Shown: positions 12,224 through 14,243 of the stretch, one piece after another
How the letters are laid out: each line of letters begins with the position of its first letter
Numbering within the stretch: position 1 is the stretch's first letter
NCBI GenBank assembly: GCA_021647985.1
Contig: JAKITQ010000019.1
Coordinates: 1 to 56,312 of the forward strand
Direction of reading: 5' to 3'
DNA length: 56,312 nt
Source of the DNA: Flavobacteriaceae bacterium
GTDB lineage: Bacteria; Bacteroidota; Bacteroidia; Flavobacteriales; Flavobacteriaceae
Notes under the pieces: model-generated
The model's input: the letters and a program-made list of their open reading frames with translations, nothing else
Databases searched by the model: none
What the model was told of the DNA's origin: nothing
Made by a program: the position numbers and the translations under genes

Positions 12224-13348
12224 ATGAAGAAAGATTATTACGAAATACTTGGTGTTGGAAAAAATGCAACAAGCACAGAAATAAAGAAAGCTTATCGTAA
12301 AAAAGCGGTACAAAATCATCCGGATAAGAATCCAGGAGACAAAGCGGCAGAAGATCGTTTTAAAGAAGCGGCTGAAGCTTATGAAATATTGAGCAATACT
12401 GACAAAAAAGCACGTTATGACCAGTATGGTCATGCAGCTTTTGAGAATGGTGGTGCAGGAGGTGCTGGTGGATTTAGTGGTATGAATATGGATGATATCT
12501 TTAGTCAATTTGGCGATGTTTTTGGTGGTCATTTTGGTGGTGGAGGTTTTTCTGGTTTTGGTGGAGGTTCTCAACAAGCCAGAGTAAAAGGAAGTAATCT
12601 TCGTATCAGGGTAAAATTAGAATTGAAAGATATTTTAAATGGTGTTGTAAAAAAAGTTAAGGTCAAACGATTGGTAAAAGCTGAAGGTGTAACCTATAAA
12701 ACCTGTGGTACTTGTAATGGACAAGGAAGTGTTACGCGAATTAGCAATACTATTTTAGGAAGAATGCAAACGGCTGCAACTTGCCCAACTTGTAAAGGGG
12801 CTGGTAAATCTGTTGATAACAGGCCAAAAGGATCTGATACTAACGGAATGGTTCAAAAAGAAGAAACCGTTGAAATTGAAATTCCGCCTGGAGTAACCGA
12901 TGGTGTGCAATTAAAGGTTTCAGGAAAAGGAAATGAAGCACCTGGAAATGGAATTCCAGGAGATATACATGTTGTTATTCAGGAAATCCCACATGAAGAG
13001 TTAAAAAGAGAAGGAAATAATTTACATTATGATATGTATATTAGTTTCCCTGAAGCTGCTTTGGGCACCAATAAAAATATTGATACCTTAACTGGCAAGG
13101 TTAGAATTAAAATTGAAGAAGGTACACAATCTGGTAAAATACTACGCTTGCGCGGAAAAGGATTAGAAAGCTTGGAGCGCTATGGTAAAGGTGATATACT
13201 AGTGCATATTAATGTTTGGACTCCTAAAAAATTATCCAAAGAACAAAAAGAATTTTTTCAAAAATCAATAGATGATGATAACTTTAAACCAAAACCATCT
13301 AATTCTGAAAAGTCATTTTTTGAAAAAGTCAAAGACATGTTTTCGTAA
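12224..13348 (+). CDS. dnaJ: chaperone DnaJ (Hsp40), zinc domain with two CxxCxGxG motifs
   Basis: The 374 residues start with a J domain (1-68) with the HPD tripeptide in [10 protein letters not shown] Gly/Phe-rich linker follows (about 75-120). The zinc region (about 158-195) holds CGTCNGQG and CPTCKGAG only. Two substrate-binding beta-domains follow, with [22 protein letters not shown] and [21 protein letters not shown]. Classical E. coli DnaJ has four CxxCxGxG motifs forming two zinc sites. Here there is room for one four-cysteine site, which I recall as a shorter version in this phylum. It stimulates DnaK ATPase and delivers clients. It is co-transcribed with grpE. Confidence 0.95.
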
Positions 13349-13427
13349 CAAGACAAGTATCAATTTGTTATAAAACTATTTCTTGCATTTTATAACGTAA
13401 AATAGATTTATTTTTAATATATTTGTT

Positions 13428-13503
13428 TTACTGAATTGTTAAAATTCAGTAACTTTTTCTTTTTCATAGCAATTTTCCCACTCTTTATAGAGTGGGTTTT
13501 TTT
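13428..13503 (+). ncRNA. candidate small RNA, unit 1 of a tandem pair
   Basis: A TAnnTTTG-type box (TATATTTG, 13418-13425) is followed by hairpin TTACTGAATT/AATTCAGTAA (13428-13437 with 13443-13452). Next comes a 25-nt segment (13458-13482, TCTTTTTCATAGC then AATTTTCCCACT) and terminator hairpin CCCACTC-TTTATA-GAGTGGG (13477-13496) with a T run. The same architecture and the identical 25-nt segment recur in unit 2. No open reading frame is present. It may simply be a terminator region after dnaJ, but conservation of the linker argues for an RNA with a function. It may belong to a known flavobacterial RNA motif such as Flavo-1, which I cannot check. Confidence 0.5.
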
Positions 13504-13570
13504 ATGAATAATTGATAAAAAAATATTAATAAATGAGGTTTTTTGTTAAAAAAATTTGTATTTTTACAGC

Positions 13571-13652
13571 CTTATTTATATTACTATTTTATAGTAATAT
13601 TCTTTTTCATAGCAATTTTCCCACTTTTGTTTTCAAGAGTGGGATTTTTTTT
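13571..13652 (+). ncRNA. candidate small RNA, unit 2 of a tandem pair
   Basis: Hairpin ATATTACTAT/ATAGTAATAT (13578-13587 with 13591-13600) is followed by the same 25-nt segment as unit 1 (13601-13625). The terminator stem is CCCACTTTTG-TTTT-CAAGAGTGGG, ten pairs with one G-U, followed by nine T. A possible -7 box, TATTTTTA, lies at 13559-13566. Both hairpins differ in sequence from those of unit 1 but keep their position and the 10-bp length of the first stem. That pattern is expected of a duplicated structured RNA rather than of a recent copy. Promoter support is weaker than for unit 1. Confidence 0.5.
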
Positions 13653-13668
13653 TCAACAATTTAAGCCT

Positions 13669-13680: not shown

Positions 13681-14056
13681 AAAGTAAGTCATCTTATCGC
13701 TTTGTTCTGAACTTGTTTCAGAACCCTTATATTAATTTATAGAGGTGTTGAATCAAGTTCAACATAAAGAGGAAAGTCCGGACACCACAGAGTAGCATAG
13801 CGGATAACATCCGTCATCACGTCTTAGGCATGATAGGACAAGTGCAACAGAAAGCAAGTACAGTTAGGCTGTAGTGAAACCAGGTAAACTCTATGCGGTG
13901 CAATGCTATGTATATTGAAGTCCCTTATGGGTAAGAACTACTCGTTCAATTTCAAGGGGTAAGCAGCTAAAATTATAAAGTAATTTATAATGTAGATAAA
14001 TGATAAGAATCCGTCGGTTGACGGATAACAGAATCCGGCTTATTGGCTTACTTTTC
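13681..14056 (+). ncRNA. rnpB: RNase P RNA, bacterial class A
   Basis: The universally conserved 5' core GAGGAAAGTCCGGACACCAC lies at 13769-13788. Its P4 partner near the 3' end is ACAGAATCCGGCTTAT, 14029-14044. The ends pair as helix P1: AAAGTAAGTC at the start with GGCTTACTTT at 14045-14054. This ribozyme cleaves the 5' leader from precursor tRNA. The length of about 375 nt fits class A. The region between P1 and the core contains the hairpin GTTCTGAACTTGTTTCAGAAC (13704-13724, one base over a 20-base core), whose 15-base centre matches the dispersed repeat in this window. A U-rich run after 14051 may end transcription. Confidence 0.93.
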
Positions 14057-14243
14057 TTTTTATTAAATTCGTAAAATCTACCCTATTTTTTTACAATATT
14101 TTATGAATTAAATAAATAAAAACATTTTAATTTTTAAGTGCTGAATAATAGGCTATAAATATTGAATATATTATAAAATAATGTATTTATTTTGTAAATT
14201 TGAAGATTAAAAATAATAACTCACTCAATAAAATAAATAGGAT

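What the first reader, a model, noticed from the sequence alone, without database searches (positions are those of the whole stretch)
13418..13655. Tandem small-RNA-like units with an identical 25-nt linker between dnaJ and rnpB
Two units about 143 bp apart share hairpin, 25-nt identical single-stranded segment (13458-13482 and 13601-13625) and terminator hairpin. The first hairpin changes sequence (TTACTGAATT versus ATATTACTAT) but stays 10 bp long. The terminator stem changes too but remains paired. Preserved pairing with changed sequence plus a frozen linker is the mark of a functional RNA. The linker could base-pair with target mRNAs or bind a protein. This is the best candidate for an undescribed RNA family here.
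Basis: partly seen in the sequence, partly recalled or inferred. Interest (0 to 1): 0.75.

Follow-up and report, generated by a model that had tools for sequence, protein, structure and literature searches.

The report
Conserved small RNA gene pair
Next to the dnaJ gene sit two copies of what looks like a short regulatory RNA that most relatives in a large bacterial family also carry, with one stretch of letters kept almost unchanged; it matched no family in the RNA catalogue searched here and looks like an overlooked core regulator.

Summary
Each unit (13428-13503, 13578-13653) is a promoter-led 5' hairpin, a frozen single-stranded linker (core CUUUUUCAUAGCAAUUUU) and an intrinsic terminator. 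No Rfam family matches. An exact linker 16-mer recurs in 19 of 21 other genomes of the genus, 17 with two or more copies; rnpB follows in 19 of 19 loci and dnaJ precedes in 17. A covariance model from 21 other sequences matches 258 of 299 genomes of the family; of 295 genomes drawn from the class only 5 match, all of that family. dnaJ precedes the RNA in 85 of 104 loci. Hairpin 1 covaries (5 of 6 pairs changed on both sides; 0 of 500 shuffles as high). So this is a family-wide sRNA, duplicated in this genus. The linker's reverse complement reads like a start region (UUGCU-AUG-AAAAA). It fits DUF2911 start codons in the genus (GCU before AUG in 23 of 35, background 1 of 50), but not in other genera (0 of 16), and a 23% genome sample shows no broad target excess. 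Expression is untested.

The parts
12224..13348 (+). dnaJ, conserved upstream neighbour of the sRNA locus
   Evidence: ORF, DnaJ family match; dnaJ upstream on the same strand in 85 of 104 relatives' loci
13418..13425 (+). -7 promoter box of unit 1, TATATTTG (Bacteroidota-type TANNTTTG, consensus recalled)
   Evidence: at -41 from the core; TANNTTTG at -43 to -31 in 68 of 76 named-genome sites, in a control stretch in 3 of 72
13428..13452 (+). unit 1, 5' hairpin (10 bp, 5-nt loop)
   Evidence: covariation of this helix in relatives
13453..13476 (+). unit 1, single-stranded linker; family core CTTTTTCATAGCAATTTTCC at 13459-13478
   Evidence: 20 core columns invariant in 40 units collected by an exact 16-mer of the core; 18-nt core exact in 30 of 30 fetched best model hits
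13477..13503 (+). unit 1, intrinsic terminator (8-bp stem, T run 13497-13503)
13559..13566 (+). -7 promoter box of unit 2, TATTTTTA (last letter off TANNTTTG)
13578..13600 (+). unit 2, 5' hairpin (10 bp, 3-nt loop)
13601..13618 (+). unit 2, single-stranded linker; core at 13602-13621
13619..13653 (+). unit 2, intrinsic terminator (11-bp stem, T run 13645-13653)
13681..14058 (+). rnpB (RNase P RNA class A), downstream neighbour; not part of the sRNA
   Evidence: Rfam RF00010, 178.1 bits

Best explanation
The two units are tandem paralogous genes for ~75-nt trans-acting small RNAs, members of a so far unlisted sRNA family that is a near-universal core gene of Flavobacteriaceae, usually single-copy and downstream of dnaJ. 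Each has its own housekeeping-type promoter and ends at an intrinsic terminator; the two hairpins protect and present a frozen linker. The most likely action is antisense pairing of the linker with translation-initiation regions: its reverse complement (AAAAUUGCU-AUG-AAAAAG) looks like the start of a Met-Lys-Lys exported-protein mRNA, so binding would block ribosome access. In this genus the best-supported targets are DUF2911 genes. Shown by sequence: gene anatomy, conservation, covariation, synteny, DUF2911 complementarity. Inferred: transcription, pairing in the cell, repression.
For: Anatomy. Spread: exact 16-mer in 19 of 21 other genus members, reversed-pattern control 0; model R2 in 258 of 299 family genomes, 226 of 248 good-quality ones, 207 of 236 genera; 5 of 295 class genomes match, all of the same family. 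The 18-nt core is exact in 30 of 30 best model hits fetched. Structure: covariation score 0.415 against 0.226 in shuffles, 0 of 500 as high; hairpin 1 has 5 of 6 pairs changed on both sides. Promoter box at -43 to -31 in 68 of 76 sites, 3 of 72 in a control stretch; hairpin z mean -4.2, terminator z mean -4.6, control -0.4. Synteny: dnaJ upstream in 85 of 104 loci; in the genus rnpB follows in 19 of 19 loci, dnaJ precedes in 17, the other two ending at contig ends. Targets: GCU directly before AUG in 23 of 35 DUF2911 starts of the genus, 11 of 21 in genomes whose DUF2911 sites were not read when the target was picked, 1 of 50 other ATGAA starts (Fisher 1.4e-6 for 11 of 21); mean duplex energy -14.7 against -8.1 for linkers with the upstream-pairing part shuffled, 0 of 300 as low.
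Against: No expression data. Outside this genus DUF2911 starts do not fit: 0 of 16 have GCU before AUG (mean energy -8.0 against -6.3 shuffled, 1 of 200 as low). In 671 gene starts from 23% of a relative's genome (G011) strong pairing is no commoner than with part-shuffled linkers (5 at -14 kcal or below, shuffled mean 4.0, 33 of 100 as high; fully shuffled mean 2.2, 11 of 100 as high) nor clearly than inside genes (4), so there is no broad start-codon regulon. Exact target-like sites across the family (59 in 46 of 299 genomes, reversed control 21) and in another genus (31 in 24 of 58 genomes, control 7) fall on mixed genes without one clearly recurring family, and some are sRNA variants. The DUF2911 species are related, so the counts are not independent.
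Confidence: 0.6

Rival explanations
1. It is a real sRNA family, but the frozen linker is a protein-binding site (RNA chaperone, RRM protein or a regulator that it sequesters), and the DUF2911 match is a local, secondary use.
For: The model matches in 207 of 236 genera and the 18-nt core is exact in 30 of 30 best hits, more than a few shifting mRNA targets would be expected to demand; no broad pairing signal at starts; DUF2911 pairing absent in other genera; another genus has a linker with the CAUAG motif doubled.
Against: DUF2911 complementarity within the genus far exceeds shuffled linkers, and the linker resembles an antisense of a start codon region.
Confidence: 0.28
2. It is an sRNA family whose conserved targets are one or a few mRNAs not found here (imperfect pairing, other gene regions, or another RNA), with targets changing between genera.
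For: Deep linker conservation with no clearly recurrent exact target outside the genus.
Against: No specific candidate was found; pairing with the adjacent rnpB is not better than chance (231 of 300 shuffles as low or lower).
Confidence: 0.3
3. The units are only ordinary terminators (of dnaJ and of a short spacer), repeated by duplication.
For: They lie downstream of dnaJ and each ends in a good intrinsic terminator.
Against: Promoter box at fixed distance in 68 of 76 sites, a second covarying hairpin and a frozen linker; no dnaJ was seen upstream in 19 of 104 loci, some of which are cut short by the end of the locus.
Confidence: 0.05
4. A short peptide is encoded on the opposite strand (ATGAAAAAG...).
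For: The reverse strand of the linker starts an ORF in both units.
Confidence: 0.02

Closest known systems
Yfr1 (cyanobacterial sRNA)
   Same: Near-universal short sRNA of one bacterial lineage with one fully conserved motif that pairs with translation-initiation regions, among others of envelope-protein mRNAs; different functions in distant strains (PMC6974561, passages; PMC2662882, passages).
   Different: Other phylum, different conserved motif (CCUC-containing; two flanking hairpins recalled, not from a call). Here the targets are only predicted and the locus follows dnaJ.
FopS / GibS sRNAs of Bacteroides
   Same: Same phylum; multicopy paralogous sRNAs with a conserved single-stranded seed before an intrinsic terminator; they pair near start codons, and FopS represses outer-membrane SusC proteins (PMC11697453, abstract and passages).
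   Different: FopS is a 5' single strand plus terminator, is described as conserved within Bacteroidaceae, and according to the paper its structure was deposited in Rfam, where no family matches here. Here a 5' hairpin comes first and the gene is mostly single-copy and syntenic with dnaJ.
Rfp18 of Flavobacterium psychrophilum
   Same: sRNA of a flavobacterium, widely conserved in its genus (PMC9723704, abstract, passages and the section on small RNAs).
   Different: It is said to pair through its third stem-loop, so it has at least three hairpins; our units have two and pair, if at all, through the linker. Its sequence was not seen; identity of our RNA with one of the other Rfp transcripts cannot be excluded.
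Flavo-1 RNA (RF01705)
   Different: Not among the matches of the window or of six relatives' loci.

Membership tests
Independent intrinsic-terminated sRNA gene (general kind) | own promoter | tested here: met
   sequence box only, not activity: TATATTTG at 13418 and TATTTTTA at 13559; box in 68 of 76 relatives' sites
Independent intrinsic-terminated sRNA gene (general kind) | conserved RNA secondary structure | tested here: met
   covariation score reached by 0 of 500 shuffles on 21 chosen units
Independent intrinsic-terminated sRNA gene (general kind) | a transcript of the expected size | not testable with these tools
   no expression data
Rfam release 15 families, including Flavo-1 | score at or above the family's gathering score | tested here: not met
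   only RF00010 (rnpB) in the window; none at L131, L115, L145, L162, L105, L138
Yfr1 | conserved motif pairs with translation-initiation regions | tested here: inconclusive
   supported for DUF2911 in the genus, not for other genera or genome-wide
Yfr1 | sequence and structure homology | tested here: not met
   no Rfam match at gathering; that the library holds Yfr1 is recalled, not shown by a call
FopS | 5' single-stranded seed directly followed by terminator | tested here: not met
   a 5' hairpin precedes the linker
Rfp18 | three or more stem-loops with the pairing site in the third | tested here: not met
   two hairpins per unit

The most novel reading that the evidence does not exclude
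A lineage-wide master sRNA of Flavobacteriaceae, unlisted until now, that tunes translation of exported and cell-surface proteins by one frozen start-codon antisense linker, in organisms that lack Shine-Dalgarno sequences; its gene is tied to dnaJ, and lineages reassign its targets by changing a few bases before start codons.
Probability: 0.35. Interest if true: 0.85.

Novelty: new member of a known kind. Interest (0 to 1): 0.72.

Why it matters
Flavobacteriaceae are a major group in sea, soil and fresh water, and few of their sRNAs have been studied (the paper searches here turned up one transcriptome with an sRNA tested by deletion, PMC9723704). An sRNA found in 226 of 248 good genomes of the family, usually next to dnaJ and with an unchanged core of about 18 nt, would be a core regulator on the level of Yfr1 in cyanobacteria. 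It gives a fixed genomic address, a covariance model and a testable target, so that its function can be settled in a tractable flavobacterium.

Tried and rejected
Rfam at E up to 10 gave only weak chance-like matches, the highest-scoring one on the opposite strand at 30.3 bits against a gathering score of 72. The MAFFT alignment of 56 mixed units (A2) gave no consensus structure, and the model from it (R1) is sequence-only and was not used; a hand-chosen set of 21 units with one linker length and terminator type (A3) was used instead, with a structure that RNAalifold predicted from the same alignment, so the covariation figures are for that type and lean towards that structure. The first pairing count selected perfect stems and is biased; replace it. 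Minus-strand peptide: no common reading frame. Pairing with rnpB: not better than chance. DUF2911 in other genera (16 starts read from 20 fetched stretches): not matched. A global start-codon regulon in 671 genes: not seen. The degenerate control AABBBBBATGAAAAA was cut after about 150 rows and is not used as a test; in the rows shown TTGCT stood before ATG at 4 sites outside the sRNAs. Similarity search in plasmids: no match. Dropped rows: of 82 core sites in the 80 named loci, 5 that are not sRNA-like (L120, L125, L143, L159, L165) and one too near a locus end in each part, leaving 76; those 5 loci and L099; 8 sites and then 2 more without a stem, and 9 more before its reference list; L347 (a fragment).

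Literature: PMC9723704 abstract, passages and the section on small RNAs; PMC11697453 abstract and passages; PMC6974561, PMC2662882, PMC6847099 passages; others search listings only. The claim that the family is not described rests on Rfam and paper searches of an open-access library; supplementary tables, such as the Rfp list of F. psychrophilum, could not be read.

Full report
Observation. The identical stretch is 26 nt and is not expected by chance (0 in 100 shuffles). Each unit folds as 10-bp hairpin, open linker, terminator. Unit 1 has a TATATTTG box ending two bases before the hairpin; unit 2 has TATTTTTA. These fit the -7 element of Bacteroidota promoters (TANNTTTG; recalled).

Spread in the genus. 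An exact 16-mer of the linker (TTCATAGCAATTTTCC) was found in 25 of 149 genomes (own genome included): 19 of 21 other genomes of the genus and 5 of other genera of the family; the reversed pattern gave 0 in each. Of the 19, 17 have two or more copies; the two misses (G007, G008) are 61% and 74% complete and the two with one copy (G006, G018) 67% and 70%. Read out, the pairs of the genus lie 143-175 nt apart and have two distinct hairpin types. In 19 genus loci, own included, rnpB follows in 19 and dnaJ precedes in 17; the other two end at a contig end there; the aconitase gene that follows rnpB in the window is met in 18. The family-mates G078, G023 and G067 also have dnaJ before and rnpB after a copy.

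Spread in the family. A 20-mer with up to one mismatch matched 58 of 299 genomes of the family, reversed control 0. That the unnamed family is Flavobacteriaceae is inferred: one of its genomes (G225) has the two core positions of a named Flavobacteriaceae contig (L118). In 76 sites TANNTTTG lies -43 to -31 from the core in 68, against 3 of 72 in a control stretch; folding z-scores average -4.2 (hairpin), -4.6 (terminator), -0.4 (control).

Covariation and model. On 21 units of one type, 98.9% of cells pair (shuffled 90.5%), the covariation score is 0.415 against 0.226, 0 of 500 shuffles as high; the count of further pair types is weaker (20 against 17.7, 14 of 500 as high); sliding the partner by 1 to 3 columns drops pairing to 37-51%. 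A covariance model from these (R2) matched 258 of 299 family genomes at E 0.01 or better, 226 of 248 good-quality ones, 207 of 236 genera, in the rows shown mostly once per genome; species of the model may be among them, but they are at most 21. The 18-nt core is exact in all 30 best hits that were fetched. Of 295 genomes drawn from the class, 5 match and all belong to this family; 4 other same-family genomes in the printed list did not match, and 270 non-matching genomes were not listed. So the RNA is a family trait as far as sampled.

Place. In 104 loci (74 named-genome loci and 30 model hits) dnaJ precedes the RNA on the same strand in 85, with 64 to 273 nt between in the 40 positions printed; grpE precedes in 62; an ABC-transporter-like ATPase (named by eye) follows in 73. 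Several of the 19 without dnaJ are cut short by the end of the locus; others are extra copies elsewhere. The likely ancestral place is after dnaJ; the genus of the window has a tandem duplication there with rnpB next.

How it may act. The reverse complement of the core, AAAATTGCTATGAAAAAG, looks like a start region. Searching the genus for AATTGCTATGAAAAA (up to one mismatch) and reading some of the sites showed many starts of exported-looking proteins, repeatedly DUF2911 (PF11138), a small outer-membrane type protein (DUF6646, PF20351) and two lipoprotein-like families without a Pfam match. DUF2911 relatives were then sought: 22 of 22 genus genomes have some, 30 loci were fetched and 35 start regions could be read from 29 of them. 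23 have GCT directly before ATG; in genomes whose DUF2911 sites had not been read when the target was picked 11 of 21; among 50 other ATGAA starts, 1 (Fisher 1.4e-6 for 11 of 21). Positions -4 to -1 (TGCT) are 74-83% conserved, while -40 to -15 lie at 31-57% except one at 74%, and -14 to -9 at 51-77%. Duplex energies are lower than with any of 300 linkers whose upstream-pairing part was shuffled, also in the unread genomes alone. Translation in F. johnsoniae favours A at -3 (PMC6847099, passages), so G at -3 is not what translation alone would select.

Results against. In 20 stretches from other genera, 16 DUF2911 starts could be read and 0 have GCT before ATG. Exact target-like sites in the family number 59 in 46 of 299 genomes (reversed control 21), at least one of them an sRNA variant; of 30 loci read, 18 open a frame of 100 codons or more, on mixed genes, and two of these look like related lipoproteins. 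In another genus of the family (58 genomes) 31 sites were found (control 7); of 30 read, at least 10 are a further sRNA-like variant and the rest are mixed, with few genes met twice. In 671 gene starts of G011 there is no excess of strong pairing over part-shuffled linkers. So the start-codon mechanism is well supported for one gene family in one genus and open elsewhere; the deep linker conservation needs either a conserved partner not yet found or a protein.

Known or new. Nothing in Rfam 15 matches at gathering or comes near it, and four written forms of the core occur in no paper of the library. Paper searches found Rfp18 and 85 newly described F. psychrophilum transcripts, among which this RNA may lie unrecognised. 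By the way it may work it is closest to Yfr1 and to FopS/GibS; it belongs to neither on the tested features. It is a new member of the kind 'trans-acting sRNA', notable for its near-universal, syntenic conservation in one family.

Noticed in passing
own genome G000:C70:40256-40878 (L007 1757-2379): Four tandem repeats of about 202 nt, each with the linker letters TTCATAGCAATTTTC (then C, in one copy G), here without the 10-bp hairpin, and with a terminator-like palindrome such as CTCTTATTAAGAGTTTTTTT between copies; a fifth diverged copy follows. A second RNA class sharing the linker letters is possible. A similar element occurs in G019:C209 (L053).
   Followed up: partly
L458, L464, L470, L477 and others (another genus of the family): A variant of the sRNA whose linker holds the motif twice (TTTTCATAGTTTTTCATAGCAATTTTCCCAC in L458) before the same kind of terminator.
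   Followed up: partly
L064 (G023:C12) 1464-2052: Three near-identical units 252 nt apart with no dnaJ match in the 3-kb locus, and a CCUCC/GGAGG terminator instead of CCCAC/GUGGG; up to 7 model matches in one genome (G644).
   Followed up: no
G003:C233, G018:C6, G011:C1:446290-447383 and others: DUF2911 genes often stand in tandem pairs in this genus, and both paralogues often carry the GCU-AUG start context.
   Followed up: partly
41 of 299 family genomes without a model match (20 listed): 16 of the 20 listed are small assemblies of 2.3 Mb or less; whether they lost the RNA or carry a diverged form was not looked at.
   Followed up: no
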